Assembly (NCBI RefSeq): GCF_029227915.1
Contig: NC_079882.1
Span: 28,014,001-28,078,000, forward strand
DNA: 64,000 bases
Source of the DNA: Hydractinia symbiolongicarpus
Lineage: Eukaryota; Cnidaria; Hydrozoa; Anthoathecata; Hydractiniidae
Reading direction: 5' to 3'
This document shows, piece by piece, positions 1 through 60,493 of this stretch. Made by a program: the position numbers and the translations under genes. Numbering within the stretch: position 1 is the stretch's first letter; every line of letters begins with the position of its first letter. The notes below the pieces were generated by a model that was not told the DNA's origin, did not search any database, and saw only the letters and a program-made list of their open reading frames with translations.

Positions 1-345
1 ATGAGAATGGTTAGGTGAATCTGTAACGCCAGTCTGAGAGACAGAAAGGGTTCAGATGAGCTAAGAAGTAGGCTAAGAATTAAAGATGTTATCCAGATAA
101 GAAGATTGAATTGGTTGGGACACTTGGAAAGAATAGAGGAGGATAATTGGGCAAGAAAGTGTAGAGACTTGATAGTTTCTGGGGCAAAGCCCAGAGGCAG
201 ACTGAGAAAGACTTGGCATGAGGTTATAAGGAGTTTAGATCTAACACAGTCTAGATCAGATTGGAAGAGGGTCATTTATATACCCTGCCCAAGCCATGCT
301 AGCATGGAAAACGGACGTTAAGCCAAGAATGATGGTGATGATGAT
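1..345 (+). mobile_element. LINE 3' end fragment (RT C-terminal tail)
   Basis: This is the last part of a non-LTR retrotransposon reading frame, open from 106 to 321 with upstream remnants from base 1. The peptide has the W-GHLERI-ED...KPRGR-RKTW pattern seen at the C-terminus of many invertebrate LINE reverse transcriptases. A TGG codon appears to have become TGA near base 16, so the copy is dead. It ends in a GATGGTGATGATG-type tail at about 333-345. Related pieces lie at 783-945 (inverted), 51903-52090 (inverted) and 61692-61830 (internally deleted). Confidence 0.75.
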
Positions 346-945: not shown

Positions 946-1363
946 AGTGGCAAACATCAAAGTTTGTACTTTGGGTGCCACTAAAATAAATAAAATTTCT
1001 AATAGGAGGTTCACAGGACAATGATTTTCATATATCAACAACTTAGATAAAATTGATAGTTTTGATCTTGTAATTGTTGCCCTAAGTTGCTGGAATCATT
1101 ATATGGGTATAACGCTGTAAAACTCTCTTTCTTTCATTTTATGGCTTATTCAGGAAGAGGTACTGAAGTTGACGTTGTCTAACTTTTAGGACAGCTTTTT
1201 ATGGGTTGAGAATCAAACACTGTTGTAAATCTATGGCAGTTTGTAAGTTGAAAATGCAAAATGCAGATCTAAATTTGCTAGACTGGTTAGATGTAATTAG
1301 CTGCTAATGTTATATACAATTTTAAATTTACCTTTTCAGAACAAGTTATACTATATCATTAAA

Positions 1364-2455
1364 ATGCTTCGTTTTGGTCAAAATGCAAGAGTTTTATTTC
1401 AAAGATATCATTCAAGATTATTATCAACATCAAAGTTGTTATGTAAAAAAAATGATGATAACCAGAAAAGCAAGAATTCGAATATTCAAGACCTTCTTAG
1501 TTCTATGGAAGAATCTAGTAGAGAACCTGTAGAATCATTACAAAACCTAATGAAAAGTATGAAGACTAAACAACAACTTGCAAAGACTAAAAAACAAACA
1601 AGGTTGAAGCTTACGAAGCAAGATGTAAGGAAGCATAAAGAAGGAGAACATTTTTGGTTCAGACAAGAAGAAACCAATTCAAAGTTAGAGAGTGACAGTG
1701 CTATAAATGATGACACTGAACAGCTGGAAAATTTGATGCCTGAAGAGGATCTTACCAGTAGAAGTATTATTGAAAATTATAACATTGAAGTTAGCCAGAA
1801 ACTTCAAGTTTCACAGCTAAAAGATGATATTCTCCAACGTGGAGACAGTAGGAGTGTATCCAAGTTGATGACAGCTTTGATTGATGAGATTGATGAAGAT
1901 TTACCGAATCCAGAACAGAAACTGAAAACTTTAATGAATGCTATGAGCAAAAAAGCACCAGAAAAAAGTTTTCAAGAGGAAGAACAGTCTACCTCTCTAC
2001 GTGATATGAAACAAAGAAGGAGAGGGGTTAGTTTAACATTTGGAGAAACAACAAATCTCTTTTCTGGCAAACTCTTACAAGAATCTACATGTGTTGCAGA
2101 GAAAGTTTTTTTACTTGAGAAGAAGTGGCAGGATGACCTTCAATCTTTACTTCCAGAAAGCATTCCTCAAAACTCCTTTGAAGAAAGTATGCTAGATATT
2201 GATAGACAGTGGAGGTTTCCAATTGATAATGAACAAGATATGGGAATTGAAGAAGAAACGACATTTGATCAGCATGTATTTTTAGAATACTTACTAGACG
2301 AATTTCCAAGAGAAGGTCCTATTCGAAAATTCATGGAGTTGGTTGTTACAGGACTTCAACAAAATCCATATTTGACTGTAGAGGAAAAAGAAAGTAGAGT
2401 GTTTTGGTTTAGAGATTATTTTCAAAAATTTCCAGAGCAAGATATTATGTTATAA
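1364..2455 (+). CDS. mrps31: Mitochondrial small ribosomal subunit protein mS31 (MRPS31)
   Basis: An intronless reading frame of 363 residues if it starts at the ATG at 1364. An upstream in-frame ATG at 1307 is less likely because the residues from 1364 form a basic, hydroxylated, Arg-rich presequence (MLRFGQNARVLFQRYHSR) typical of mitochondrial import. The middle is charged and of low complexity. The last 65 residues carry the family hallmark: HVFLEYLLDEFP, GPIRKFMELV, GLQQNPYLTVEEK, and a W-FR-YF ending. MRPS31 is a metazoan-specific protein of the mitochondrial 28S subunit. The length is close to the vertebrate protein (about 395). A poly(A) signal follows about 100 bases downstream, and the LRR gene starts about 740 bases further on in the same direction. 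Confidence 0.9.
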   Translation: MLRFGQNARVLFQRYHSRLLSTSKLLCKKNDDNQKSKNSNIQDLLSSMEESSREPVESLQNLMKSMKTKQQLAKTKKQTRLKLTKQDVRKHKEGEHFWFRQEETNSKLESDSAINDDTEQLENLMPEEDLTSRSIIENYNIEVSQKLQVSQLKDDILQRGDSRSVSKLMTALIDEIDEDLPNPEQKLKTLMNAMSKKAPEKSFQEEEQSTSLRDMKQRRRGVSLTFGETTNLFSGKLLQESTCVAEKVFLLEKKWQDDLQSLLPESIPQNSFEESMLDIDRQWRFPIDNEQDMGIEEETTFDQHVFLEYLLDEFPREGPIRKFMELVVTGLQQNPYLTVEEKESRVFWFRDYFQKFPEQDIML

Positions 2456-34426: not shown

Positions 34427-35226
34427 ATCTTATCCAATGAAATTAACAGCTAGCTAACTAAAAATAAGGTTGAACACAATTTTTAGGATTCTTCATAAAC
34501 ATAAACATTTTATTTTTAAAATTTAGCCATTTCTACAAGCTGTATATAAATGCTAAATGTATAACACATGCTCTACCAGCTACCTAGCTAGCTACGATTT
34601 TTACTCTATTTTACTAATTTAACTCTATAACTCTATTTTACTAATTTTTATGAAAATACTTTGCAATCTTGTGTTGCTACGAAGTTTTGGAGATTTTTAC
34701 TCTATTGTGTCCAAAAACTGGCCGGGTCAAATCAACAGTACCCAAAATATGATGTTTTAATTTGTCGTAGAATGTTTGTTGGGTCTTGCTAAAAACAGAG
34801 CTCATGTGGTACATCCCTTCTTTAAAATCTAAAAGGCGCCGAAGATGGGGGCCTAACATGGTCTTTTGCCCAATCTTGTGTGTCACATCCTGCCCAGTCT
34901 TAAGACTGGCCGACCAGTCAATTTTATGTCCAAAGATTGAGCAGCGTCCTAGGATTGGGCAAAACAACACTAATACCAAAGCTTTGTTACGTCTAACACA
35001 AAGATAGAGAAAGAGAGTGAAAGTGAAAGTGACATAATATTATCAGCTGGTTAGCTAGCCAGCTACAAATAAATTCAACTGATAAATGAAAACTATTGCT
35101 CTAATGTCAAAAAATATAAATTTCTGTCATATCATATAAAAAACAAAGCTAGCTAGGTAAAATGTCTCCTTTACGCTACAAAATAGCTACATGCACTTGT
35201 TTTATAAACTCGAGGAAAGAGGTTAA
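34427..35226. other. TAGC-rich repetitive spacer
   Basis: Contains partial inverted repeats around TTTTGCCCAATCTTG (34863) and GATTGGGCAAAAC (34955). No gene. Simple AGAGAAAGAGAGTGAAAG-type sequence lies near 35007-35030. Confidence 0.45.
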
Positions 35227-35400
35227 AGGGAAGAAATTTTCGCGGGAAGAAAATTTCGCGGTTTTCGCGGTTTTTGGAAAAAACCGCGAAATTTTCTTCC
35301 CGCGAAAATTTTAAAAATTCACCGACCGCGAAATTAAATTCCCGCGAAATTTTTCGAAATTTGTTGACCGCGAAATTAAATTCTCGCGAAAATTTTTGAT
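35227..35400. repeat. Left TIR and subterminal GCGAAATT repeats
   Basis: AGGGAAGAAATTTTCGCGGG at the edge, then several CCGCGAAATT and TTCCCGCGAAAA blocks in alternating orientation up to about 35395. Confidence 0.85.
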
Positions 35401-35526: not shown

Positions 35527-36150
35527 TCAATCAGAGTCAATCGTGATAATCTTTTCCGTTTTCTTCTTGCCATCTCGCCTTTTAGTAGTTGTTTTAATGC
35601 TAATGGTCTTGCTAAAAAAACTTCGGATATCTTTCTGATTGCTCGCTTCATCTTTGGACTTGCTCTTCTTCGATTGGGATGAAGTGGAAGGTAAATTGAT
35701 GCTTTCCTCGGTCACATTATTAGGTTGTAAAAAGGATCCCAGATTTTCCTCATTCTTGGGTTCAATGTACAATTCCTCTATAAGTTGTTTATATTTTTCC
35801 ATCAACAGAAGGTTAATACAAATACCAGCAATTTTCACTGTGATTTTACATGGAATCTCCATACCGCCTTGAACGATGGGAGAGCGTCTATAATGTTCAC
35901 TTGTAAGCTTGGCATTAACGATTGCTCCTCTATCCATGAAAAATTTTGTAACACGCGAGATCTCTCGTGGAAGATGACCAACTGCATTTGTATCTCCTAT
36001 TTCGCAAACCTTGATCGCGAAACGATCAAAGGGATTTCCAAACTCGTGATGACATTCTAGAAATTGTTCTCTCTGAGGATTCCAAAAGCTTTTATAATAA
36101 TGGTATCCTCTTACTGCTGCTGAAAATTCGAAAACTTTACTGTACGCCAT
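35527..36150 (-). CDS. Transposon-encoded HIRAN-domain protein with PIP box and SIM-like C-terminus
   Basis: 207 residues, ATG at 36150. Residues about 8-108 match the HIRAN fold: VRGYHYYKSF, then NPFDRFAIKV, then VGHLPREISRVTKFFMDRG; compare NPYDxxAIKV and VGHL in HLTF. HIRAN domains of HLTF/Rad5 proteins bind single-stranded 3' DNA ends at stalled forks. The rest is a Ser/Lys-rich linker with basic stretches (KKSKSK 161-166; KRRDGKKK 190-197) that fit nuclear localisation. QKDIRSFF (172-179) fits the PCNA-binding PIP consensus Q-x-x-[ILM]-x-x-[FY]-[FY] exactly. The last residues IITIDSD (201-207) fit a SUMO-interacting motif, hydrophobic core then acid. No helicase, RING or nuclease domain is present. 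I infer a replication-coupled accessory factor of the transposon that reads DNA ends and PCNA. Its role in transposition is unproven. Confidence 0.85.
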   Translation of the reverse strand: MAYSKVFEFSAAVRGYHYYKSFWNPQREQFLECHHEFGNPFDRFAIKVCEIGDTNAVGHLPREISRVTKFFMDRGAIVNAKLTSEHYRRSPIVQGGMEIPCKITVKIAGICINLLLMEKYKQLIEELYIEPKNEENLGSFLQPNNVTEESINLPSTSSQSKKSKSKDEASNQKDIRSFFSKTISIKTTTKRRDGKKKTEKIITIDSD

Positions 36151-36655
36151 CTTACAGTGACAGTAACTTTCTTCTGTACTTTCTTGTTTCCTTCTTGTCT
36201 CAATAAGTTTGTCCTCATTGTTTGACTCTCTTTTACTTCAGTCTCCTTTACTTCAGCGAGTAAGGGGTTTCCCCCTCAAACAATAGGATAAACACGCGAG
36301 AAAATTGTTGTCTGGAAAATTTTTCTTTTCGAATGTTCATTTATTTGCTCTCATCGAAGGGTTTCCCCCTCAAACAATAGGATAAACACGCGGGAAAATT
36401 GTTGTCTGGAAAATTTTTCTTTTCGAATGTTCATTTATTTGCTCTCCCGAAACAAAAAAAAACCATTGAAAGTTTTTAATAGAAATTCGTCTCGTTTTGG
36501 ATATATAGAAATGGTCTATTAAACCACAAATTTTGTATATTTGTATTGTTCATCGATCAAAATATCTTTCACTCGTGTTCTTGAGTTTGGGTGATAAACT
36601 GACACATGTAAACAAACGCGTTCATGTGAAAAAGACAAAACAAGACGAAAGAAAA
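36151..36655. promoter_or_regulatory. Divergent promoter region between HIRAN and transposase genes
   Basis: 505 bases separate the two start codons, which face away from each other, so both promoters must lie here. It contains the 88-bp tandem repeat at 36265-36446. No clear TATA box can be assigned. Confidence 0.55.
36265..36446. repeat. Two 88-bp direct repeats in the divergent promoter
   Basis: Copies at 36265-36352 and 36359-36446 start GGGTTTCCCCCTCAAAC and end TTATTTGCTCTC; I see one difference (ACGCGAG against ACGCGGG). The period is 94 bases. A role as shared enhancer or autoregulatory site is inference. Confidence 0.9.
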
Positions 36656-38433
36656 ATGTCAAGTTCAGGTAACACTACTTTTTATTATTAACTTTCATAT
36701 TGTAATACTTACTTTTTAAGCAAAAATCTTCCGAGTTTAAAGCCTTGTTAGAATTATTAAAATTCTAAAGCAGTTGATATTTATTTGATACAAATGTAAT
36801 ACCCAGATATCCCTTTAATTTTTCAGAATCGTCGCGTAACTTGCAGAGAGAATCAGGTTTAGGACCGTTAGATTTCCAAGCTGCTGCCCAAGCCGCATCT
36901 ACTCCTCGAAAGACCAACAGAAAGTCCTACCAAAAATGGTCAAACGAAGACAGATTTAATATCGGCAAATATGCTGCAATCCACGGCCCCGCTGCTGCTA
37001 CGAGGAAATTTTCATCAAGAAGCCAACCATTGAACGAAAGTACTGTTAGAGGGTGGTGTAAACTGTATCAAGACGAGGTAAAAAAGGCGAGTAAGGAGAA
37101 GCGTTCTGTCGGACGTGAGTTGGCAGTTCTCAGAAGAGGTCGACCACTTTTACTAGGAACTTTGGACCAAATGGTCCAAAAATTTCTACTGGCGGTGCGA
37201 AACAGAGGGGGGATAATTACGTCTGCCATTGCGGTATCAGTTGCCAAAGCTCTAATTGCACGAAACCCACAGTTAAATTTAGCACACATCGATCTCGATT
37301 CGTCATCTTGGGCTAAGAGCTTATTTCAAAGAATGGGGTTTGTAAAACGCATGAAAACAACAGGAAAGGTCGAAATACCCGAAGGAGCGAAAAAAGAAGC
37401 ACAACTACTCTATTTGCATGATATCGTATCCCTTGTCGAAGAACATAACATTCCAGACAGTCTCGTAATGAATTTGGACCAAACTCCACTCAAGTACGTA
37501 CCAAGCGGCAACCATACATTGGCCAAAAAAGGCACAAAGTCTATCGGAATCGCAGGCTCATCTGATAAACGTTGCATAACAGCTACCTTTGTGGTCACAT
37601 TGGATGGAAGCTTCCTACCAATCCAACTTATTTACGGCGGAAAGACTACCCAAAGTCTCCCAAGATTCAAATTCCCTGATTCATTTAGCTTGAGTGTTAA
37701 CCCAAAACACTTCAGTAATACAGCAGAATCAATAAAAGTTATCGATGAGGTTATTCTACCATATGTCAAGGCTCAGCGAGAAGCACTGGGAAAGCCAGAC
37801 CAAGCAGCTCTCTTGGTATTCGATGTGTTTCGTGGCCAAATCACCGACGAAGTCACGTCTCACTTAACACGAAATAACATATTTTTCATCATGGTACCCA
37901 ACAATATGACCCATCTATTCCAGCCGCTGGATTTAACAGTAAACGGCCATTGCAAGAAATTCATGAAAAGCAAGTTTTCTGATTGGTACACACAACAGGT
38001 TCAGAACGCCCTTGATGCTGGAGTAAAAGTGGAAAACATCAACATTGAGTTCAAACTAACGACTATGAAACCATTACATGCAAGTTGGATTGTGGACTAC
38101 TACAATCACATCGCCTCAGTAGCTGGTGTTGATGTTATTGTTAAAGGTTGGAAAATTGCTGGAATTTATGATGCGATAAAGAAAGGAAAGTTGAATCTAC
38201 CAAGCGTCGACCCGTTTAATGAGATAGCGCCGTTGGCTATGTCACCGGATGAGATTGCTAACCAGCCCAGCTTCATCGAAGTATCGGACGAGATACGGGA
38301 AGGATACGTAAACGAAATCGTAGAAAATGATGAAGATGACGACGACAATGATGATGATGCAGAATGGGGGTTCGAAGAAGACTTTGATAGAAACGCATTT
38401 GACTTCATTATCGATGATGAATGTAACGAGTAA
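36656..38433 (+). CDS. Pogo/Tigger-type DDE transposase
   Basis: Two exons, 36656-36668 and 36827-38433 (539 residues). The first exon gives MSSS plus one base; donor G|GTAACA, acceptor TTTTTCAG. The N-terminal part has a psq/CENP-B-like helix-turn-helix (residues about 36-90: KWSNEDRFNIGKYAAIHG, STVRGWCKLY), then a second HTH unit (RGRPLLLGTLDQMVQKFL, about 108-150). The DDE_1 core has catalytic Asp at about 222 (MNLDQTP), 337 (LVFDVFRGQ) and 373 (HLFQPLDLTVN), that is DD36D. The tail is strongly acidic (DEDDDDNDDDAE). No PIP box is visible, unlike the reported Drosophila pogo transposase. It should cut and paste the element by binding the GCGAAATT-type ends. The frame is intact. Confidence 0.92.
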
Positions 38434-38458: not shown

Positions 38459-38565
38459 TCTCGACCGCGAAAATTATATTTTTTTCTCGACCGCGAAATT
38501 AAATTCCGCGAAAAAAATCGTTTTGATCAACCGCGAAATTAAATTCCCGCGAAAATTTCTTCCCT
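38459..38565. repeat. Right TIR and subterminal GCGAAATT repeats
   Basis: Three TCGACCGCGAAA or CAACCGCGAAATT blocks followed by the terminal TTCCCGCGAAAATTTCTTCC end, complementary to the left TIR. Confidence 0.85.
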
Positions 38566-38885
38566 TAAGGTAATTTTTTTCTGTCCCGCAAACCTCTACC
38601 ATGTAAGATTTCAGAGTGTGTAAATACGGACCCTGACCCTGGCCCTTGGACTGAAAAGCTGATTCCTGTTGTCGTCAGCCAGAAGAACCAGCATAATTTT
38701 TTTATTACTGACTGCTTAAAATTGATTTGTGTTATCTAAGCTTTCTTCGAGAAAAAAAATCTAAATCAACGAAATAATTAAATCCGTAGAAAAATACACT
38801 TAAGCAGAAAAGCAATTATATTTGAATTTAGAATATCCATAGTCATAAGAAAGACTCTCTCTTGTGACTATGGAATATCCTATGA

Positions 38886-45906: not shown

Positions 45907-46019
45907 ATCGTTAACATATTCATGTTGTGTTATGTAGTAAATTAGTCCCTCGTAATCATATAATGTTCTAGTTATTAATGAATTCTTTATAGGTTTGCCT
46001 TTTCATAGTTAATTAGCAA

Positions 46020-46255
46020 ATATTTCTTGGGTTTAAGGCAATAAATAACAAATTAAATTTTGATAAATTTTCTCCCTGATCTTTGTCAGAGCATCTTCAG
46101 ATCCCAAGTAAAAACGTCTTTCAACATGCATGTACAAAATGTTAAAAATTCTCTTGATAAAAATAAAATGTATAAAAATCGTTTATTAACAATAAAAGTC
46201 GTTAAAAATTATAGTATGTTTTCCCAAATTTCAGATAATCGTCTTATTTCATCTT
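46020..46255 (-). repeat. Left Penelope terminal repeat (contains RT ORF 3' end)
   Basis: Nearly or fully identical in complement to 50766-51001. Read on the minus strand it carries the last codons of the RT/endonuclease frame, its TAA (46209-46211) and the 3' UTR. Confidence 0.85.
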
Positions 46256-46289
46256 TTTTGTTCAATAAATCCGATTTATCCCAGCCGGC

Positions 46290-46640
46290 ACAAGACGTCT
46301 TTTAGACGTCTTAAGATGTCTTTTTTTAATCTTCTGTTAGAAAACGCTATTAAGATGTCTTTAATGCATCTTCTTAAGAACGTCTTTCAAAAGACATCTT
46401 TTATACGTCTTTTGAAAGTAAATAAATGCGAATCCTGTAGTATACGCATTTTAGATGTCTTTTAGAAGATCTTTAAAAGACGTCTTTTAAAAGACATCTA
46501 AAAGTTATCTAAAATATATCTTTTAAAAGACGTCTTTCTCTTTTTGCTATAATGCATCTAAAACGCGTCTTTTAAAAGACGTCTTTTCCTACTTCTAAAA
46601 GTGGTCTAAAATGCGTCTTTTAAAAGACGTTCGATTTTTT
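46290..46640. repeat. Subterminal GACGTCTTTTAAAAGACGTC palindrome array
   Basis: About ten copies of RAGACGTCTTTTAAAAGACGT-related units, each self-complementary, in the left end of the CACTA element; fewer copies lie at 49160-49210. Dense subterminal repeats are the usual transposase binding platform of CACTA elements. Confidence 0.85.
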
Positions 46641-47738
46641 ATATGGAAAATTCGATTTAAAATAACGGGGGTGTTCGCAAACTTAGTTAGCATGTTTATT
46701 TTGTAGGAAATCAATTTTTCACGAAATTGAAAGTGGTAATTGTCACTTTTAATTATTTTTAAATACTAATGTATTTTGGCGACCCTTCATAATACGTTTT
46801 TATTTCATTACGTCGTAATTTTGTTTTCCTGCACCCCCTGACGGATATTCTTTGACACTTGACCATTGGAACACTCAATAAAAATTGGCGGTAGTTTCAT
46901 GAAAGCATCTGCGGGATACCGGTCGTTTAAAAAGTAAGTATTTTTGTTTTGTGATTCTCGGAATAGAGTACAGCGGTTTTTAGTACTAAGTCTAAAGGTC
47001 AAATTCGTGTTCGGTTTCCCTGGACACAAAAAGTCGGTCCCGGCCATCTTTTACAGAAAGATGGCGATATGTAAACAAGCAAACCCAGCTAGCCAGCCAG
47101 TAGTCAAAAAAAAGGACAAAGACTGGAAAGAAAATATTAAAGAAATCAAATTTGTTTTCTGGTTTTGGTGTTTAATGAAGGAACCGTTATTTTTATTCTA
47201 TATGCTTTTATTTTTAGACAAAAACTATTTCTTTTAACCTTGAAAGAAATTGAGAAAATGTATATATTTTGTTTTTGTTATACACTGCTGAAGCTAGCTA
47301 ATTAGTTATTAGGTAGCACCTAGCTATATAGGACGCTAGCTAACTTCAAGCTAAATGGAAAATACTGTCTAATTTTATCTTTATCTAACTCTAATCCTAA
47401 CCCTGTCTTATTGCTCTTCGGTACAAACTGTCAATGGAAGCTCTGCCCTCCGCCTTTCTTCCTTTACCAGTCAATCAACAAAGTCAATTTTTCATATTTA
47501 CCATTCATGACACTGTCCAGGTGTTTCAGAGTGATTTTAATCTGCAGAAAGTTCAGTTATGCCATGTTTACATAATATCAACATACATAAAGAGACCACA
47601 TAACTAAAAACTAATTATATTTTGGTGTCATTAATGAAAACATGTTTTGGTAAAATAAAATTTATATATATATACATTTTGTTTTTTAAATTTGAAACAA
47701 ACCTTCAACTAAATTTTCAGATACTGTCACTTTGGGCA

Positions 47739-48761
47739 ATGAATGATTCCCGTCTCCGCAAAGAAAGGAGATTGGTTAATCAAAAAGTTGACGAGATTTT
47801 AAACGGTGAAGATAGTGATCAACATGACCTGTTAAGCAATCCTTCTGACAATGAAAATGATAGATGTATCAGTTGTGATGACGAGCCTTTAGATTCCTCA
47901 TTCTCATCAAATGAAAATGAAATTCTGTATAACAGTCTGGATACAGTGACCAATCCAGAATCATTAATTTTATCTGACATTTCACGATGGGCAGCTAAAA
48001 GTGGATGTTCCAGAGAGTGTTTAAATCAACTTTTGTTGATATTACGTAAACATGGCATGACTGAACTTCCTGCAGATAGTAGAACTCTACTTGAAACACC
48101 ACGTCATGTCGAAACTGCTCATAAATGTGGTGGAATTTATTCTTATGTTGGTATTGTTAAACAAGTGAAAAAGATGTTAAAACTTCACCACTGTCTTATG
48201 AATGAAAACAATCTTTTTTTGACAGTAAACATAGATGGCCTTCCTTTGTCAAAGTCATCTCAATCACAGTTATGGCCGATCCTTGGTTCGTTGAACAACT
48301 CTGACAGTGTTTTTGTTATTGCTCTCTATCATGGCACCTCAAAGCCCAATTCTACAAATGAATTTTTGGAAGATTTTTTAAACGAAGTAAATTTTCTTCA
48401 GATAAATGGCCTGGAAGTTGAGGAAAAAACATTTCAATTTTTTTTAAAAGCATTTGTATGTGATGCACCGGCAAGAGCTTTCTTGAAGTGTGTAGTCGGT
48501 CATACTGGGTATTATTCATGTGAGAGGTGTAATATAAAAGGCCAGTATATTGACAACCGAGTAGTATTTCTTCATGATGGTTCAGAAATAGCAAGGAACG
48601 ATCAACATTTTAAACAATTTTTATACCATCCACACCAGAAATGTATCAGTCCATTAGTCTCTCAGCTTAATTTTGATTGTGTGTCAAAGTTTACATTGGA
48701 CTATATGCACCTTGTGTTGTTAGGAGTGATGAAGCGTATGTTGCAGTTCTTAACTAACTAA
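47739..48761 (+). CDS. CACTA-type transposase, C-terminally truncated
   Basis: 341 residues from the ATG at 47739 (after a TTTTCAG acceptor at 47714-47720; upstream codons are open but not conserved). The N-terminus is acidic (EDSDQHDLLSNPSDNENDR). The transposase core has NIDGLPLSKSSQSQLWPILG with the first Asp, FVIALYHGTSKP, FVCDAPARAFLK with the second Asp, a CERCNIKGQY zinc-ligand block and LDYMHLVLLGVMKRML. The frame ends in a TAACTAAACTAA-type simple repeat where family members continue for several hundred residues with the third acidic residue. Truncated by the repeat expansion and later stops, it is likely inactive. Confidence 0.8.
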   Translation: MNDSRLRKERRLVNQKVDEILNGEDSDQHDLLSNPSDNENDRCISCDDEPLDSSFSSNENEILYNSLDTVTNPESLILSDISRWAAKSGCSRECLNQLLLILRKHGMTELPADSRTLLETPRHVETAHKCGGIYSYVGIVKQVKKMLKLHHCLMNENNLFLTVNIDGLPLSKSSQSQLWPILGSLNNSDSVFVIALYHGTSKPNSTNEFLEDFLNEVNFLQINGLEVEEKTFQFFLKAFVCDAPARAFLKCVVGHTGYYSCERCNIKGQYIDNRVVFLHDGSEIARNDQHFKQFLYHPHQKCISPLVSQLNFDCVSKFTLDYMHLVLLGVMKRMLQFLTN

Positions 48762-48791
48762 ACTAAACTAAACTAACTAAACTTAACTAAA
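48751..48791. repeat. (AACTA/AAACT)n simple repeat ending the transposase frame
   Basis: TAACTAACTAAACTAAAC-type tandem units interrupt the transposase coding sequence; recognisable coding resumes just after with GPLQIRLSSN. Confidence 0.8.
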
Positions 48792-50765
48792 GGGCCACTT
48801 CAAATCAGGTTATCATCTAATCACATCTCACAAATTTCTTCTCGCTAAGATTATTTATTATATTGTGATTGTTTAACACCCTGTCTATAAAAAACTTGTT
48901 AAGGATTCAATTTCATTGGCATTATTGTTTACTTTTAATAGTTCGGCTTTCAATAATCTGTCATCAATATTGACACATCAGCCTTGCTTTGAAGAAAGTG
49001 GAAACACGTACGTTTTTGATTTAATTATTTTATTCGTTGTGTGATAATATGTTTGTAATGTGAAAATGTATGTGTAATGTTTTATTGAGTTTTTGGGTCA
49101 TTCTGAAGATTAGTTTCCGAATTTTTATAGCTCTCAAAGTTCATCAAAAAAACCATCATTAGACGTCTTTTAGAAATGCGGAAGATGTCTAAAAGACGTC
49201 TTTTAGACATCTTTGTGCCGGCTGGGATGTTGTTTAATCGCTAATGCCTCTTTAAATTTTCTTTTAATAAAATTGTTTTCCCTATAGAGAATTTCTATTT
49301 TCTCAAAGTTCATTTCGTGTTTTGTTTCTTTAATGTGTTTGGACATTCCAGAGACGTTTTCTTTATCGTTTTTTGCGCCATTTTTGTGTTCTTTTATTCG
49401 TGTTGTCAACTTCCTTCCTGTTTCTCCTATGTAATATTTTCCACAATCTCCACACGTTACTTTATATACAACACCTGATTCATTGTCCTGGTTTCCGTTT
49501 TTCAATATTTTGTTGCCTTTTACAACATTTTTTAGCGCTTTGTTTTTCGTATGTGTTAATTTTACATTAAATTTCTTGCATACTCTGGCGATTTGTTCTG
49601 AGATGCCTTTTTCATAGGGTAAAAACAATCGAATTGAATTCGTGTCGTCATCTGTCTGGTTTCTTCCATTACATTCTTTGTTTAATGTTTCTTTTATCGT
49701 TTTTGTTACGATGTTCTTGGGAAACTCATTTAATTGCATAGTTTTTTGTATATAATTCAATTCTTCTTTGAGGTCTGCTTCTTCTGTGCAAATGGTTTTT
49801 GCTCTTCTCGTTAAAGTTTTAATTGTCGATAGTTTTACGTGTAAAGGTTGGTTTGACGTATAATTAGTGTATTGTCCCGTATGCGTAGGTTTTTTATACA
49901 CTTTTGTTTTCACTGTATTATCATCTTTTCTCATTATTAAACAATCCAAAACTGGGATCTGGTCATCCTTTTCTTCCTCCGCTGTGAATTTTACCTTTGA
50001 ATGAATGTTATTCAGCTCATTTAAGGTGTCCTCCGTTTTATGTTTTGTAACAGTGAACGTATCGTCTACTTTTCTTAGCCAAATTCTTGGTGCGTGTAAC
50101 ATTGAGTAGATACTATTTTCTTCTATTCTTTGAATGTAGATTTCGGCAAAACATGGCGACGCAGGTGATCCGATGAAGAGACCATCCGCCTGGTTGTAGA
50201 ATTTGTTTCCTATTTTGAAGGTCATAAATTCAACTGAGATTTTCACGAGACGTACTAAGGCTTCTTTATTAACATTTGTTTTAAAAGTGTCTTCTCTGAT
50301 TCTCCTTTCTACTTCATGTATGACTTCAGATTTTGGTAGGGAAGGGTACATATCTGCAATATCAAAACTCACCAACTTCTCATTCTCGTCCAAATTAATT
50401 TCTTTTACTTTGTTAACAAATTGCTCCGTGTCTTTTATGTATGATTTTGCTGATGTTGTTAGATATTTAAGTTCTTTACTAACAAATTTAGCAATTTTGT
50501 AGAATACAGATCCTTGAGTGTTTATTATAAGTCTGACCTTTAGTGGGTTTTTATGAGTTTTTAATGATGGTCTTGCCATAGGTGTTGACGGCGTAATTTG
50601 TTTTAATTGTTTCATTTGTTCTATCGATAACATGTTTTCTTTTCGGAGATTTGCGATTTCCTTGTTAATAGCCGTTTTTGCTTTCTCAATATTATCACTT
50701 TTCAGTTCTACATATCTCTCTTTGTTGGATAATTCTTGATGAAATAAGACGAAATAAGATGAAAT

Positions 50766-51001
50766 AAGATGAAATAAGACGATTATCTGAAATTTGGGAA
50801 AACATACTATAATTTTTAACGACTTTTATTGTTAATAAACGATTTTTATACATTTTATTTTTATCAAGAGAATTTTTAACATTTTGTACATGCATGTTGA
50901 AAGACGTTTTTACTTGGGATCTGAAGATGCTCTGACAAAGATCAGGGAGAAAATTTATCAAAATTTAATTTGTTATTTATTGCCTTAAACCCAAGAAATA
51001 T
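50766..51001 (+). repeat. Right Penelope terminal copy, inverted
   Basis: Complement of 46020-46255. It is preceded by a short GAAATAAGAT tandem array (about 50750-50780). Confidence 0.85.
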
Positions 51002-51013
51002 GTTCTAGTTATT

Positions 51014-54650: not shown

Positions 54651-55337
54651 CTGTTGTATATAATGTAAACCACTAACATTTTCTTTTAAACTAATTAAAT
54701 GTTATTCCCTGGTGTGATTTTAACATTTAATTATGCTCATAACTTGAAATGTTGATAGATTTTATCTATATAAATTTTGTAAAAATTGTTTTTTGCTTTT
54801 TAGTAAGTATGAATAAATTGTATTTATTGCTTTTATTTATTTTAGTTATCTTGATGATGGAAGAAAATTCCGAAATATATTGATAAAAAATAAACTCATT
54901 GTTCGTGAATCACCTTTCTAATATCCTAACTTCCATTTAAATAACAACACAGGAAAGAGCTCGTTGTTACCCTGTGCAGCCAAAACAATAACTTAGCAAT
55001 AATTTTATTTTGTGCAAAATAAAAAGACAGTTTATAACCTGTTTTTACTATATTACACCAAAAACAATCATGCAACATTGTTTTGTTTTGTGGGAATATT
55101 TCACATAAACGATCAAAAACTAATTGTGTCACTTCGGTTGAAATAAAAACACCAGAAGCAGCTAAAAAAAAATCACACAGCTGGATAGAAATTTGTAAAT
55201 GCAAAAACGTTTTTGATATAGAAAAAATTTTATTTCTGTAACTTGAGTGAAATTGGTGCATTCTTTCTCATTAAAAAGAATGATGCAAAGGATACAACAA
55301 CCTCTATATTAAGTTTTACTTTAAACCCTCTGTTTTA
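54651..55337. other. Spacer before the Ngaro element
   Basis: No recognised gene. A 111-codon minus-strand frame at 54926-55261 has no known features. Confidence 0.45.
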
Positions 55338-55547
55338 GTGACTCATAAATATATATTTATGAGTGTTTAAATGCACACATATATAGATCTTCTTCCTACA
55401 GTACTCTGGTTTGTATTGCCCATAGTTAGTTCACCATTTACCTATGTGCCTTTTCTGGTCAGCAGCATATTTTTGGTCAGCAGTCTTGCTAGTATTTAAG
55501 CTGCAGTTGCCTCATGGTTTTCCTTTTCAGTTCTAGCAGTTTTTCTT
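55338..55547 (+). repeat. Ngaro A1 repeat
   Basis: 210 bases starting GTGACTCATAAATATATAT and ending CTAGCAGTTTTTCTT; the same as A2 at 59999-60208. Confidence 0.92.
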
Positions 55548-55627
55548 ATGCTTATGTCTGCTGCTTATTAATCCACTTAAATCTAATCAATCAATTTGCA
55601 ATCAAACCAATCTTTGGCTAATTAAAC

Positions 55628-57064
55628 ATGTATTTATCACCTATATGGATGCTGTTATATTTTATCTCACCTACTCAAACGCCAGATGGCTCAGAAGATG
55701 AAGATTCAACTTCTCAAACCTTCCAATCTGCTGCAATGTCTGTCGCTCTTGAGGAATCGTCCACACTCAAAAAGAAACGTATCCCAAAATGTCCTGGCTG
55801 CAAGGCACTTCTGGCTCTACACGACTTTGGTATTCCCAGTCGTCACTGTCCAGGTCGTCGTTCTAGCGCTACCAACACTGTCACATCAGCTGCTTCAGCA
55901 CTTTCCTCAACTATCGCTAATAACCCAATGTCTTCAATCCAAAGATCTTCGCCTCTGCAGTCTCACCTAAACAACCCAAACAAATCTTCTTCACCGTCTC
56001 AGCTAGCTGCTCTTCGAAATCAGCTGGCTGTCTTAGAACAGGAAGAGCTATCCCTAAGGGAAAGTTTACAAACAGAAGAGCAACACCTTCTCAATCAGAT
56101 TGCTGCTCGACAATCAGAATTAGCTAGGCTTCGCTCAGCTTCTTCCAGAAATGACTGCCCAGCACAAATTTTAAGCACTTCCCCGTTGCATCAAACTGTA
56201 AATCCAACCAATCGTGTCCAAGACAATCTCCGCCGTTCACCCCTTGACGTACAACCGCCATCTTGTTTTGCTTCCTTGCTTGCTCCGCAACAGTCCGCCA
56301 ATTTGTTGACCAATCGCACTGTCTTGTCACAACAACAAACACGCTCCCTATCGGATGTTTTTCGCCAGCAAGAAGACCGTAGTTCAGAATTGTTTCTGCG
56401 CCCTGCACTTTCTTCAAACACTGGAAATGGTAAGCCACTTCGTATAGTCGATTTTGTGTCTCGGCTTCGTCCTGTGGAGCAGGAGAAAGTTATTTCTACT
56501 GATCCTGGTTCTCAAACTACGCTAATGTTGGCCATTGGAAATAAGAAGCCAAGACTGGAATCTCTTTCCATGGAACAATATAACATAGCTAATTTGAGAA
56601 TTTTTTATGAATTATTGTCTTCTGCCAGATTGCCAACCTCGTCCGATTTACGTGACTATTTGTCTTATTCCATTAAGATCTTAGAGTTGGCTAGAAAGTA
56701 CACCTGGGAGTCTGTGCTAAAGTATGACGATGAATATCGAATTCTTCAGCACACATATGGCTATCCATGGAGCTTTGACAATAGCCATTTGCATGAAGTG
56801 ATGCTTATACCTCGTTGGGCCTCCCCTCCTGTCTGTAACCCTTCCAGTACCTTAAGTAAGGGAAATTCAGGTTCACCTGCCTCAGGATCGTCTTCAGGGT
56901 TTCCTACACATACTTCTTCCGGTGTGGAAATATGTCGTAATTTTAACCGCCAAAAAGGTTGCCAGAAAACAGAATGTAAATTCACCCACGTCTGCAACCG
57001 CAAAATTGGTAATCAGGCTTGTGGCAAACCTCATTCTGGACAAAACCACAATTCTGACAATTGA
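55628..57064 (+). CDS. Ngaro ORF1, gag-like protein with CCCH zinc finger
   Basis: 478 residues. Near the N-terminus a CPGC...H...C cluster (residues about 56-77) may bind zinc. A Gln/Leu-rich stretch at about 120-175 (LAALRNQLAVLEQEEL) looks like a coiled coil. The C-terminus has a CCCH finger, C-x8-C-x4-C-x3-H (CRNFNRQKGCQKTECKFTH), then a second Cys/His group. This is the nucleic-acid-binding end expected of a gag-like protein. The frame stops at TGA (57062-57064), and the next codon, CTA, continues in the same frame into the RT ORF without another stop. The start at 55628 is the first ATG after A1; an internal ATG near residue 37 is an alternative. Confidence 0.85.
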   Translation: MYLSPIWMLLYFISPTQTPDGSEDEDSTSQTFQSAAMSVALEESSTLKKKRIPKCPGCKALLALHDFGIPSRHCPGRRSSATNTVTSAASALSSTIANNPMSSIQRSSPLQSHLNNPNKSSSPSQLAALRNQLAVLEQEELSLRESLQTEEQHLLNQIAARQSELARLRSASSRNDCPAQILSTSPLHQTVNPTNRVQDNLRRSPLDVQPPSCFASLLAPQQSANLLTNRTVLSQQQTRSLSDVFRQQEDRSSELFLRPALSSNTGNGKPLRIVDFVSRLRPVEQEKVISTDPGSQTTLMLAIGNKKPRLESLSMEQYNIANLRIFYELLSSARLPTSSDLRDYLSYSIKILELARKYTWESVLKYDDEYRILQHTYGYPWSFDNSHLHEVMLIPRWASPPVCNPSSTLSKGNSGSPASGSSSGFPTHTSSGVEICRNFNRQKGCQKTECKFTHVCNRKIGNQACGKPHSGQNHNSDN

Positions 57065-57067
57065 CTA
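57062..57067 (+). promoter_or_regulatory. Candidate stop-codon readthrough site TGA-CTA
   Basis: A single in-frame TGA separates ORF1 from the RT ORF, followed directly by CTA. UGA CUA is an established leaky-stop context in animal and viral mRNAs. Readthrough here would make a gag-RT fusion; this is inferred from sequence. Confidence 0.6.
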
Positions 57068-58690
57068 CCTTCAGAATTTCGCACTCCTCTTAATGTTGAC
57101 TTATGGACCAATGAACTGGCTGAAGACCCAGATCGTGACTTCCTCCTTAATGGAATTCACTGTGGTTTTCAGCTTCTTCCTAAGGACTCTGATTTATTGC
57201 CTGCCGAAATGAATAACTACTTTTCTGTTACCAGTCCTACAGCTCATATGAAAGTAGAAGCTACTCTGCTGGATGAACTTAAAACTGGTAACTATGTTCT
57301 TACTCAATGTAAACCTACCATTGTCAGTGCTCTTGGGGCTGTCCCCAAACCTGACTCTGATGAGTTACGCATTATACATGACTGTTCCATGCCAGTTGGA
57401 AAGGGTGTCAATACATACATTGATATTGAAAAACAAAAATTTCAAACTATTGATGATGCCTGTGCTATGATCAAACAGGGATATTTTATGGCCAAGGTTG
57501 ATTTACGCCATGCATATCGGTCAGTACCTGTTCATCCATCAAACTATGCTGCGCTTGGTCTAAAATGGCGGTTTTCTGGAAGCACTCGATACTCATATCT
57601 TGTCGATACTCGACTTCCTTTTGGAGGTCGAAGTGCTCCTGGAATATTTCATCGCCTTACACAATCTGTTCGTCGTATGATGCTAAGACGAGGTTTTCCT
57701 CTCGTTATTGTCTACCTAGATGATTTTCTTGTTATTGGCCGAACACAGACTGAATGTTATGAGGCCTATAACACACTCTGTAAATTACTTGTTGCACTAG
57801 GGTTTCAGCTTAGCCCTGCTAAGTTGGTCCCTCCATGCCAGCAACTTACTTTTCTTGGAATTCTGCTTGACACTGTGTCACTTACCCTTTCTCTTCCACC
57901 TGCTAAACTGGATGCATTGAGGGAAGTAGTGTCACATTTTTTAACCAAGCAGAGAGCCTCTAAGAAAGAGTTGCAACGTCTTGCTGGTCGCCTAAATTGG
58001 GCTTGTAAAGTCGTGTATGGTGGTAGAACGTTCTTGAGACGTGTCCTGGATCTGATGAACACCTTGTCTTCCTCTGCCTCGAAGTGTCGCTTGACGCTCG
58101 AATTTCACAGGGATATAGCTTGGTGGGATCAGTTCTTGGGTGTGTTTAATGGACAATGCGATTTCTATGACCAAAGACCTATTACCAGTCTGCAAACTGA
58201 TGCTTGCTCTGACGCTGTTGGTGCCTTTTTTGAGGGTGATTGGTTCTATTCTCATCTAAGGGTAGACCATTCCCCTCTTGCCTCTTTGCATATTAATTTT
58301 AAGGAAGCCCTGTGTGTAGTTCTTTCTGCTATTCGCTGGGCTCCCACTTGGCAGAACAAAACTATCCATGTCTTCTGCGATAATACTGCTGCTGTTGCTA
58401 TGCTTAATAAAGGAACTACCCATCACCCTGTTATGATGGACTATTTACGTCAGTTGTTTTGGTTATCGGCTACCTTCAATTTTCGTTTGAAGGCTTTCCA
58501 TGTAGCTGGTGCTCAGAATGTCCTTGCTGACGACATATCACGTCTTCATTCAAGACAACACTTATTATCATTTTTGCACTTTTTGCAGCTCAACTCACTA
58601 ACTTCAGTCTGTGATATGGTTGCCATCAATCATATGTCTGCCTATTCATATTATTTTCTCATTGGTAAGTATACCATCTGTGGTAGCTAA
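57065..58690 (+). CDS. Ngaro ORF2, reverse transcriptase and RNase H
   Basis: Open from the codon after the ORF1 TGA; 541 residues to TAG at 58690. The first ATG is at 57209, so either readthrough or reinitiation is needed for the N-terminal LPSEFRTPLNVDLW segment, which reads like real protein. RT motifs counted from 57197: KVDLRHAYRSVPVHP (100-114), RLPFGGRSAPGIFHRL (139-154), YLDD (173-176), FLGILLD (219-225). The RNase H part has TDACSDAVGAFF, FKEALCVV, FCDNTAAVAML and VLADDISR, the usual D-E-D-D set of DIRS/Ngaro elements. It copies element RNA into DNA in the cell. A consensus donor (G|GTAAGT at 58664) near the end may splice this ORF to the recombinase. Confidence 0.92.
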   Translation, partial: LPSEFRTPLNVDLWTNELAEDPDRDFLLNGIHCGFQLLPKDSDLLPAEMNNYFSVTSPTAHMKVEATLLDELKTGNYVLTQCKPTIVSALGAVPKPDSDELRIIHDCSMPVGKGVNTYIDIEKQKFQTIDDACAMIKQGYFMAKVDLRHAYRSVPVHPSNYAALGLKWRFSGSTRYSYLVDTRLPFGGRSAPGIFHRLTQSVRRMMLRRGFPLVIVYLDDFLVIGRTQTECYEAYNTLCKLLVALGFQLSPAKLVPPCQQLTFLGILLDTVSLTLSLPPAKLDALREVVSHFLTKQRASKKELQRLAGRLNWACKVVYGGRTFLRRVLDLMNTLSSSASKCRLTLEFHRDIAWWDQFLGVFNGQCDFYDQRPITSLQTDACSDAVGAFFEGDWFYSHLRVDHSPLASLHINFKEALCVVLSAIRWAPTWQNKTIHVFCDNTAAVAMLNKGTTHHPVMMDYLRQLFWLSATFNFRLKAFHVAGAQNVLADDISRLHSRQHLLSFLHFLQLNSLTSVCDMVAINHMSAYSYYFLIGKYTICGS

Positions 58691-59699
58691 TTTTTGTATT
58701 CTCCTTCCTCTAGAGTTGCCCCCCTTCGTTTCGGAGTTGGTTCACGACGTTGTCCTTTTTCGGCAGGCCACCTATGCTGAGAATACAAAAAAGAGCTATC
58801 GCACGCATCGCAAGGCTTATGAATGTTTTTGTAGCCAGATGTCTTCGCCACTTGTGCCTGCCTCCACAGATTTTTTATGCCTATATATTGCCCATCTGGC
58901 TAGGTTTTTACTACCACAATCAGTTTGTATGTATCTAAATTTTGTTGGCCTTCTACATCTTGAGATGGGATATGCTAATCCTCTAACCAACAATTGGACA
59001 CTATCCACAGTTTTAAAAGGTATGAAGCGTATGCTTGGTGTTCCGGCCAAGCCACGTCTTCCTATTACCACTACTCTTCTTTTTGGTATTCGTTCTCGCC
59101 TTAACCTAAATTGTAGCTTTCATGCTTCATTTTGGGCTGTTTGTTTAGTTTCATTTTTTGGTCTGTTCCGTAAGTCACATTTATTGCCGGCATCTTCTAC
59201 GATATTTAATCCCCTCAAACAACTAGTTCGGTCTGATTTTACTTTTCATGATGACCATATTCTCGTTCTAGTTAGATGGAGTAAGACCATCCAACTGGGA
59301 CAGCGCACAATTACTGTTCCACTGGTGGCTATTCCTTCTTCTCCTCTTTGTCCAGTTCGGGCTATTTTGCATGCTTTTTCTCTCACTCCAGGTGTTCTGC
59401 CTGATGCTCAAGCCTTTTGTTGGCGCAAATCCTCGATGCTACCCAACTCTATATTGACATATCGGACTTTCATGTCCGTTATGAAAAAAGTGTTGACAGA
59501 GTTAGGGTGTTCTACCTCCCAATATGGTACCCACTCGTTTCGCCGTGGGGGGGCCACCTTTGCTTTAGAGGCAGGCGTTCCCCTGGATGTCATATCCTTA
59601 TTGGGGGACTGGAAATCTGATAGTATGTTTCTTTACCTTCACATGCCCCTTGCTCAGCGGTTTTCTGCCCAACGACTTATGGCATCACACCTTGCATGA
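58611..59699 (+). CDS. Ngaro ORF3, tyrosine recombinase
   Basis: Frame of 362 codons overlapping ORF2 by 80 bases in another frame. The first 35 residues are hydrophobic and probably not coding; the real protein probably starts near LPPFVSELVHDVVLFRQ, reached by splicing 58664 to 58714 or from an unannotated start. A SAM-like core-binding domain covers about 40-150 (TKKSYRTHRKAYECFC). Catalytic residues: Arg187 (GLFRKSHLLP), Lys225 (RWSKT), H308-x2-R311 (THSFRRGG), Trp334 and Tyr342 (MFLYLHMP). All five positions are present, so integration activity is plausible. Confidence 0.88.
   Translation: MIWLPSIICLPIHIIFSLVSIPSVVANFCILLPLELPPFVSELVHDVVLFRQATYAENTKKSYRTHRKAYECFCSQMSSPLVPASTDFLCLYIAHLARFLLPQSVCMYLNFVGLLHLEMGYANPLTNNWTLSTVLKGMKRMLGVPAKPRLPITTTLLFGIRSRLNLNCSFHASFWAVCLVSFFGLFRKSHLLPASSTIFNPLKQLVRSDFTFHDDHILVLVRWSKTIQLGQRTITVPLVAIPSSPLCPVRAILHAFSLTPGVLPDAQAFCWRKSSMLPNSILTYRTFMSVMKKVLTELGCSTSQYGTHSFRRGGATFALEAGVPLDVISLLGDWKSDSMFLYLHMPLAQRFSAQRLMASHLA
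58665..58713 (+). other. Candidate 49-nt intron joining RT/RNase H to recombinase
   Basis: Donor ATTG|GTAAGTATA and acceptor TCCTTCCTCTAG|AGTTG. Splicing would read GAG-TTG-CCC and fuse ORF2 in frame to ORF3, removing the ORF2 stop. The size is near the lower limit for animal introns. Confidence 0.5.
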
Positions 59700-59744
59700 C
59701 ATATTTTATTTTATTTTATTTTCTACTACTACTTTGGATTTGGA

Positions 59745-59998
59745 CTCTATGTTTTCACATATTTTACGTTGTGAGCTATGCTATGTATATATATATTTTG
59801 TTCACGCTTATTAATATTATATAGAGATGTGTTATTACCTTGGCTTTGTTGTTGCTTATATTATATATGTGTTCTACTTTCATTTCATGCTTGTATATAT
59901 TTTCAGCTATTACTATATATAAATGTTTTGTAACTTTTGTCCTATCTACAGCAATAGAACTGTACTCTACAATGATGAGTTTTTATGTGTGAGTTTAA
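59745..59998 (+). repeat. Ngaro B1 repeat
   Basis: 254 bases starting CTCTATGTTTTCACATATT and ending TGTGTGAGTTTAA; the same as B2. Confidence 0.92.
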
Positions 59999-60208
59999 GT
60001 GACTCATAAATATATATTTATGAGTGTTTAAATGCACACATATATAGATCTTCTTCCTACAGTACTCTGGTTTGTATTGCCCATAGTTAGTTCACCATTT
60101 ACCTATGTGCCTTTTCTGGTCAGCAGCATATTTTTGGTCAGCAGTCTTGCTAGTATTTAAGCTGCAGTTGCCTCATGGTTTTCCTTTTCAGTTCTAGCAG
60201 TTTTTCTT
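59999..60208 (+). repeat. Ngaro A2 repeat
   Basis: Directly abuts B1 and equals A1. Confidence 0.92.
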
Positions 60209-60239
60209 CCTCCTCCCTCCCTGCTGCTATTATATATAC

Positions 60240-60493
60240 CTCTATGTTTTCACATATTTTACGTTGTGAGCTATGCTATGTATATATATATTTTGTTCAC
60301 GCTTATTAATATTATATAGAGATGTGTTATTACCTTGGCTTTGTTGTTGCTTATATTATATATGTGTTCTACTTTCATTTCATGCTTGTATATATTTTCA
60401 GCTATTACTATATATAAATGTTTTGTAACTTTTGTCCTATCTACAGCAATAGAACTGTACTCTACAATGATGAGTTTTTATGTGTGAGTTTAA
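60240..60493 (+). repeat. Ngaro B2 repeat
   Basis: Equals B1 and forms the 3' end of the element. Confidence 0.92.

What the first reader, a model, noticed from the sequence alone, without database searches (positions are those of the whole stretch)
35527..36150. Transposon-borne HIRAN-PIP-SIM protein: a possible transposon-encoded reader of PCNA (or SUMO-PCNA) at replication forks
Seen: the pogo-like element encodes, divergent from its transposase, a 207-residue protein with a HIRAN domain (NPFDRFAIKV, VGHLPRE), an exact PIP-box match QKDIRSFF (172-179) and a terminal IITIDSD that fits a SUMO-interacting motif. Known: HIRAN of HLTF/Rad5 binds 3' DNA ends; yeast Srs2 uses a PIP-like motif plus an extreme C-terminal SIM to bind SUMO-PCNA; Drosophila pogo transposase is reported to carry a PCNA-binding motif. 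Inference: here the PCNA link has moved to a separate partner with a DNA-end sensor, which could couple excision to replication or steer repair of the donor site. I know of no description of this combination in a DNA transposon.
Basis: partly seen in the sequence, partly recalled or inferred. Interest (0 to 1): 0.92.

Follow-up and report, generated by a model that had tools for sequence, protein, structure and literature searches.

The report
Two-gene transposon with PCNA-docking partner
A jumping gene in a marine hydroid carries, beside its cutting enzyme, a second gene whose protein joins a DNA-end-binding type of domain to docking motifs for the replication clamp PCNA and for SUMO; the gene pair and the motifs are conserved across related elements, so this looks like a working second component that may tie jumping to DNA replication or repair.

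The parts
35226..35263 (+). left TIR arm (outer CCTT of other copies missing here)
   Evidence: 38-nt arm, 92% complementary to 38529-38566; 8 of 10 family-1 left ends read TA|CCTTAAGGG
35282..35396 (.). left subterminal 42-bp direct repeats with ACCGCGAAATTAAATTCCCGCG, possible transposase binding sites (inference)
35527..36150 (-). HIRAN-PIP-SIM gene, 207 aa
35896..36132 (-). HIRAN domain, residues 7-85 (fold match extends to about residue 128)
35614..35637 (-). PIP box QKDIRSFF, residues 172-179
   Evidence: pN/pS 0.35 across 8 families against 0.82-0.87 in linkers; short helix 175-178 in the model
35530..35550 (-). extreme C-terminal SIM, IITIDSD, residues 201-207
   Evidence: pN/pS 0.22 at the aligned SIM columns; terminal SIM in 43 of 83 long homologues
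36151..36655 (.). region between the two divergent genes, with an 88-bp tandem duplication at 36265-36446; promoter role inferred
36656..36668 (+). predicted transposase exon 1 (ATG)
   Evidence: read by eye: GT at 36669, AG ending at 36826; introns near the same place in L034 and L037
36827..38433 (+). transposase main exon; catalytic D213, D328, D364 counted from the TTG-started ORF, DD35D
   Evidence: DDE_1 34.1 bits; the three D are invariant in the 24 sequences aligned
38465..38558 (.). right subterminal repeats
38529..38570 (-). right TIR, outer end CCTTAAGG, followed by TA at 38571-38572

Best explanation
The element is a two-gene cut-and-paste transposon of the pogo superfamily. Its second protein is a standing component, not a chance capture. 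It is most likely an adaptor: the HIRAN domain holds DNA ends or ssDNA, and the flexible tail docks on PCNA through a PIP box and on SUMO through the last residues, the same two-point grip by which Srs2 recognises SUMO-PCNA. It would bring the transposase complex to clamp-loaded DNA. It could act at the donor site, steering gap repair after excision toward copying from the sister, or at the target, choosing replicating DNA as Tn7 TnsE does. Shown here: domain, predicted fold, motif presence, motif conservation, linkage to the transposase, recent mobility. Inferred: the binding partners, any contact with the transposase protein, and the step at which it acts.
For: HIRAN. Linkage: 65 of 84 transposase matches have a listed HIRAN match within 5 kb, 65 of 65 divergent (some matches are pieces of one element); 5 of 7 further ones read also carry it. 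Deep lineages: a profile of 36 sequences hits lineage B HIRAN at 102.7 bits and lineage C at 70.4 bits. Beyond this genome: 9 longest-contig lengths of at least 2,500 bases shared between the HIRAN and transposase hit lists, offset control mean 1.2, maximum 6. Selection: pooled pN/pS of 8 families 0.39 HIRAN, 0.35 PIP, 0.22 SIM, 0.82 and 0.87 linkers. Retrieval by residues 1-130 only: PIP-like 59, terminal SIM 43, both 39 of 83 proteins of at least 170 aa, shuffles 0.25, 0.28, 0.000; textbook PIP consensus 16 of 59 against 0.03. Srs2's SIM is its last five residues IIVID (PMC4030836 passage), and SUMO-PCNA contact supports its SDSA role (PMC5441872 passages). Pogo transposase was found as a PCNA interactor in a two-hybrid screen; TnsE uses the clamp plus 3' recessed ends (PMC5371812 passages). 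Internal-deletion copies with short junction overlaps suit interrupted gap repair.
Against: No binding or transposition data. R71 of HLTF is H in 36 of 36. Lineage B has no PIP core in its HIRAN tail and no terminal SIM; lineage C keeps a terminal SIM but no PIP core, so the pair can exist without the full tail. Pfam does not reach its HIRAN cutoff for B (not listed) or C (13.2 of 24.7 bits); they are assigned by the family profile only. HIRAN-only and HIRAN-less copies exist. The looser motif classes were set after seeing family members, and homologues are not independent. Of the 20 Hydractinia HIRAN loci, several have disrupted tails and were left out. 88 of 150 HIRAN matches have no listed transposase within 5 kb, although only 81 of 1043 transposase candidates were scored. 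Insertion orientation gave no clear sign of fork direction.
Confidence: 0.6

Rival explanations
1. The HIRAN protein is mainly a DNA-binding or assembly partner of the transposase (as the Myb-like protein is for PIF/Harbinger elements, recalled); PIP and SIM are secondary, for localisation only.
For: HIRAN is the part kept in all three lineages, while the PIP core is absent from the HIRAN tails of B and C. The pairing is divergent in 65 of 65 listed cases.
Against: PIP and SIM show pN/pS as low as HIRAN's in the eight main-lineage families, which a dispensable tag would not.
Confidence: 0.2
2. It is a counter-host factor: it occupies SUMO-PCNA or DNA ends to block the host's own HLTF- or Srs2-like repair and so protects transposition intermediates.
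For: The architecture imitates a host fork-remodelling domain (HLTF) joined to an Srs2-like tail; Pfam finds no motor domain in it.
Against: No evidence that host HLTF or recombination factors limit this element; nothing tested separates docking from blocking.
Confidence: 0.1
3. The PIP is a CRL4-Cdt2 degron that destroys the protein on replicating DNA and limits activity to other cell-cycle phases.
For: PCNA-dependent degrons use PIP boxes (recalled).
Against: Such degrons carry T-D at PIP positions 5-6 (recalled); here position 5 is R in 34 of 36. It does not explain the SIM.
Confidence: 0.05
4. A host HIRAN gene fragment was captured by chance and drifts without function.
For: Identical recent copies alone could make a single capture look frequent; many copies in the genome are broken.
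Against: Many divergent families, strict divergent linkage, pN/pS well below 1, three deep lineages.
Confidence: 0.02

Closest known systems
pogo superfamily transposons (Passer, Tigger, pogoR, Lemi, Mover, Fot)
   Same: DDE_1 transposase, TA duplication, short TIRs, DD35D as in Passer and Fot (PMC7386202 passages)
   Different: its passages speak of one or two ORFs encoding transposases; no paper of the library holds both words HIRAN and pogo
Drosophila pogo transposase PCNA motif
   Same: a pogo-type transposon that contacts PCNA (PMC5371812 passages); a pogo-ligase hybrid peptide has a co-crystal structure with PCNA (PMC4103810 passages)
   Different: there the motif is in the transposase; here it is in the partner protein, with a SIM and a HIRAN domain
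Tn7 TnsE
   Same: a separate transposon protein with a sliding-clamp motif that binds 3' recessed ends and directs insertion to replicating DNA (PMC5371812 passages)
   Different: bacterial, its clamp is beta, no shared fold claimed or tested; target selection not shown here
yeast Srs2 C-terminal SUMO-PCNA receptor
   Same: PCNA motif plus a SIM made of the last five residues, IIVID (PMC4030836 passage)
   Different: Srs2 is a helicase; the transposon protein has a HIRAN domain and no Pfam motor domain
HLTF/Rad5 HIRAN domain
   Different: R71 is H in 36 of 36; no SNF2 or RING domain found by Pfam

Membership tests
HIRAN domain (PF08797) | curated Pfam score | tested here: met
   26.4 bits against 24.7 for the window protein; lineage C 13.2 bits and lineage B unlisted, so not met for those two
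HIRAN domain (PF08797) | HLTF-like fold | tested here: met
HIRAN domain (PF08797) | 3'-end / ssDNA binding residues | tested here: inconclusive
   N91 35/36, D94 36/36, H110 35/36, Y93 as F/Y 36/36 kept; R71 is H 36/36; N90 is N in 12/36
pogo superfamily | DDE_1 transposase with a DDD triad | tested here: met
   34.1 bits; D213, D328, D364 invariant in the 24 sequences aligned
pogo superfamily | TA target duplication and TIRs | tested here: met
   family 1: TA|CCTT at 8 of 10 left ends, AAGG|TA at 12 of 12 right ends; family 2: TA at 19 of 19 right ends with 19 different flanks, left ends not read
pogo superfamily | placement in a named pogo family by phylogeny | not tested
   no reference pogo sequences were aligned
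PIP-box protein | QxxIxxFF consensus | tested here: met
   window 172-179; family core DIRx[FM]F, Q in 9 of 36
PIP-box protein | binds PCNA | not testable with these tools
   needs a pull-down
SUMO-PCNA reader (Srs2-like) | PCNA motif plus extreme C-terminal SIM | tested here: met
   12 of 12 main-lineage members of the 14 element pairs, read by eye; 39 of 83
SUMO-PCNA reader (Srs2-like) | binds SUMO-PCNA | not testable with these tools
   needs biochemistry
TnsE-like target selector | insertion orientation tied to fork direction | tested here: inconclusive
   neighbours within 500 kb same orientation 29 of 45, P 0.036; 43 of 75 within 1 Mb, P 0.12; no control transposon and no fork map

The most novel reading that the evidence does not exclude
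A eukaryotic functional analogue of Tn7 TnsE: a transposon-encoded protein that reads a DNA end and the (SUMO-modified) sliding clamp together and directs the transposase to replicating or gap-repairing DNA, in a previously undescribed two-gene class of pogo transposons.
Probability: 0.3. Interest if true: 0.93.

Novelty: new variant of a known kind. Interest (0 to 1): 0.8.

Why it matters
How eukaryotic DNA transposons use replication and repair to gain copies is an old open question; PCNA motifs in pogo-type transposases are known but their role is called unclear (PMC5371812 passages). Here the clamp contact sits in a separate small protein with short conserved motifs that can be mutated one by one, in a family whose copies are identical at several insertion sites and may still be active. 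That makes replication coupling directly testable, and would be a natural case of a mobile element carrying a SUMO-PCNA reader.

Tried and rejected
Chance capture: rejected.

Replication-directed orientation: a first pass gave 26 of 36 neighbours within 500 kb in the same orientation (binomial 0.006) and 0.003-0.014 at 1-2 Mb and for all 149 neighbour pairs, but 0.11-0.5 at 300 kb and below. With more insertions and within-chromosome shuffles it was 29 of 45 (P 0.036) at 500 kb and P 0.05-0.16 at 100 kb, 250 kb, 1 Mb and 2 Mb. Treated as inconclusive. The control transposon search did not complete.

Local hopping: among 11 family-1 and 22 family-2 copies, 2 pairs lie within 50 kb against 0.06 expected (P 0.0015), 4 within 500 kb against 0.58 (P 0.0034) and 4 within 1 Mb against 1.18 (P 0.03); the four pairs are each in the same orientation. 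Thresholds were not fixed beforehand. Different flanks were read for the pairs L018/L019 (right flank) and L001/L002 (both flanks) only.

PIP moved to the transposase: lineage C transposases begin MAKVRDLRDFYKSS and the lineage B start that I chose is MALFKYFKK; shuffle P 0.014 and 0.017 for a loose core. Neither has the canonical PIP. Main-lineage transposases can begin MS.[ILV]R (8 of 120 listed; MSYIRKLAKL in family 2), which looks related and lacks the aromatics, so this may be another motif. Left as a lead.

Relatives in viral contigs and genome contigs: none confirmed. Transposase profile against PDB sequences: none up to E 0.1. Tail peptide against PDB sequences: none up to E 10. The Foldseek pdb search and a transposase model were not available.

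Full report

THE ELEMENT. The divergent ORF is a DDE_1 transposase (34.1 against 22 bits) with D213, D328 and D364 invariant in the 24 sequences aligned, that is DD35D. A start at 36656 with a GT-AG intron 36669-36826 is likely (read by eye; introns near the same place in L034 and L037). Family-1 copies have TA|CCTTAAGGG at 8 of 10 left ends and AAGG|TA at 12 of 12 right ends; the window copy and L017 lack the outer CCTT on the left. In family 2, 19 of 19 right flanks differ beyond the same CCTTAAGG|TA end. Four other copies (L010, L011, L013, L014) are 100% identical to the window's over the 3,230 bp compared, so mobility is recent. These features agree with the pogo superfamily as described in PMC7386202 (passages): TA duplications, DD35D in Passer and Fot. 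I did not place it by phylogeny. The host is Hydractinia symbiolongicarpus by the names of P0001 and P0203, whose longest contigs have the lengths of C1 and C4 of this genome.

RECURRENCE. In the own genome the HIRAN query gave 150 scored matches out of 774 candidates and the transposase query 84 matches, 81 of 1043 candidates scored. Of the 84, some of them pieces of one element, 65 have a listed HIRAN match within 5 kb and 65 of 65 are divergent. Conversely, 62 of 150 HIRAN matches have a listed transposase within 5 kb; the lists are truncated, so neither share is a true frequency. Of the 19 transposase matches without one I read seven. Five carry a divergent HIRAN ORF: L060-L064, of which L062 and L063 have interrupted frames and L061 an internal deletion. 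L017 has lost it by internal deletion, and L065 shows none in the 2 kb read. Twelve were not read. A profile of the main lineage scores the HIRAN proteins of lineage B (L059) 102.7 bits and of lineage C (L060) 70.4 bits, although Pfam's own HIRAN model does not reach its cutoff on either. The pairing therefore probably predates these lineages. Paired distances agree over 14 element pairs (Mantel r 0.865, 1 of 20,000 permutations), mostly because of B and C; within the 12 main-lineage pairs r is 0.32 (423 of 20,000).

BEYOND THIS GENOME. Some listed are 70-82% identical over residues 1-130 (for example P0023, P0037, P0034), while the scored list of this genome has no full-length match between 56% and 100%, so relatives outside this assembly exist. 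Nine longest-contig lengths of at least 2,500 bases occur in both the HIRAN and the transposase list (193 and 118 entries; offset control mean 1.2, maximum 6), which suggests the pair sits on the same contigs there. I could not name those organisms. The viral and prokaryotic genome collections gave no confirmed relative.

PIP AND SIM. Eight Hydractinia families (the window's and seven at 41-53% identity to it) keep D-I-R in the PIP in 8 of 8, and a terminal hydrophobic-acidic SIM in 7 of 8; L041 ends just after the PIP. They are representatives that I chose: of the 20 loci fetched, L043, L045, L051, L052, L053 and L058 have disrupted tails, L057 ends early, L049, L055 and L056 are lineage B, and the others are near-copies of chosen ones or, as L054, lack the start. 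Pooled pN/pS: HIRAN plus extension 0.39, PIP 0.35, SIM 0.22, linkers 0.82 and 0.87, with synonymous sites near saturation throughout. To avoid selecting for the tail, I searched with residues 1-130 only (348 proteins, best 120 listed). Of those 120, 37 were shorter than 170 aa and set aside. Of the other 83, 59 have a PIP-like motif, 43 a terminal SIM and 39 both; shuffled tails give 0.25, 0.28 and 0.000. Twenty have neither, several of them visibly cut short or frame-shifted. The textbook pattern Q..[ILM]..[FY][FY] occurs in 16 of 59 tails against 0.03 expected; the 59 are those of the 120 with a tail of at least 30 residues found by the script. The looser patterns were set after seeing family members, and homologues are not independent. 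Across 36 aligned sequences that I picked from both hit lists, I175 is invariant, D174 35, R176 34 and F179 35 of 36, while position 172 is Q in only 9.

DNA-BINDING RESIDUES. Mapped through the sequence alignment, HLTF N91, D94 and H110 are kept in 35, 36 and 35 of 36, Y93 is F or Y in 36, Y72 is Y in 25, N90 is N in 12, and R71 is H in 36. In HLTF the NN90,91AA double change abolishes DNA binding (PMC4666394 passages; section 16) and R71E prevents 3'-OH end binding (PMC11366124 passages). In PMC4666394, of the alanine changes tested at 70, 71, 90, 91 and 110 only the 90/91 double fully impaired function. Binding to ends or ssDNA is plausible, its polarity open.

LIKELY MECHANISM. Srs2 recognises SUMO-PCNA through a PCNA motif and a SIM made of its last five residues, IIVID (PMC4030836 passage), and this contact is needed for its role in synthesis-dependent strand annealing (PMC5441872 passages). 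The transposon proteins end in IITIDSD, TIVID, VIVID, TIIID and the like. Tn7 TnsE combines a clamp motif with 3' recessed end binding to choose replicating DNA, and pogo transposase itself was found as a PCNA interactor (PMC5371812 passages). The partner protein here has the same two kinds of reader. I therefore propose a clamp adaptor. Whether it acts at the donor gap or the target is open. Lead for the donor side: family-1 derivatives with internal deletions whose five junctions overlap by 2, 2, 1, 4 and 2 bp (chance P 0.008; one of them is a small deletion of about 28 bp), as interrupted gap repair or end joining could leave. Lead for replication-linked movement: close pairs of recent copies. 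The orientation test was inconclusive.

AGAINST. Lineage B's HIRAN protein has a Cys-rich N-terminus and an acidic tail without terminal SIM; lineage C keeps a terminal SIM (DVIEID). Neither has a PIP core in the tail (the only loose cores in B, MTKYL and LENYL, lie at residues 13 and 224, outside it). So HIRAN is the constant, and PIP-SIM is a feature of the main lineage, or moves. The main-lineage transposases also share an acidic C-terminal motif (RNAFDFIIDDE in the window) that B and C lack; its role is unknown.

NOVELTY. Searches of the paper library: HIRAN with transposase and transposon (377 papers, 20 listed; the word start also matches other words and names), HIRAN with pogo (0), HIRAN domain with transposable element (4), HIRAN domain alone (113, 40 listed), HIRAN domain with transposon (13), and four or more of transposase, SUMO-interacting motif, PIP box, PCNA, accessory protein, DNA transposon (4). 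Nothing in the listed titles and abstract starts describes this. The library lacks most subscription papers, and Repbase was not searched. I rate it a new variant of a known kind: a pogo-type transposon with an apparently unreported second gene.

Noticed in passing
window 55332-60493: Looks like a recent tyrosine-recombinase retrotransposon (Ngaro/DIRS type, recalled): RT ORF (RVT_1 48.7 bits), recombinase-like ORF (Phage_integrase 22.8 bits, below cutoff), and split repeats 55332-55547 = 59993-60208 (99.5%) and 59745-59998 = 60240-60493 (100%).
   Followed up: partly
window 46010-51011: 250-bp inverted repeats 98% alike enclose an ORF without a Pfam match (47622-48761) and an ORF with a GIY-YIG domain that looks Penelope-like (49203-50633, minus strand).
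   Followed up: partly
window 36841-38433, C-terminal end: Transposase ends in RNAFDFIIDDE..., an acidic-hydrophobic motif conserved in main-lineage transposases and absent from lineages B and C.
   Followed up: no
L059:892-1650 (-): Lineage B HIRAN protein carries a Cys-rich, possibly zinc-binding N-terminal region not recognised above cutoff by Pfam.
   Followed up: no
L060:2268-3758 (+): Lineage C transposase starts MAKVRDLRDFYKSS, a loosely PIP-like N-terminus, while its HIRAN partner keeps only a terminal SIM.
   Followed up: partly
L001, L002 (C3, 203 kb apart): Two copies share one internal deletion that removes most of the transposase and leaves the HIRAN ORF, with different flanks, so a HIRAN-only derivative has moved.
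   Followed up: partly
window 1307-2455: Mitochondrial ribosomal protein S31 gene (MRP-S31, 138 bits).
   Followed up: no
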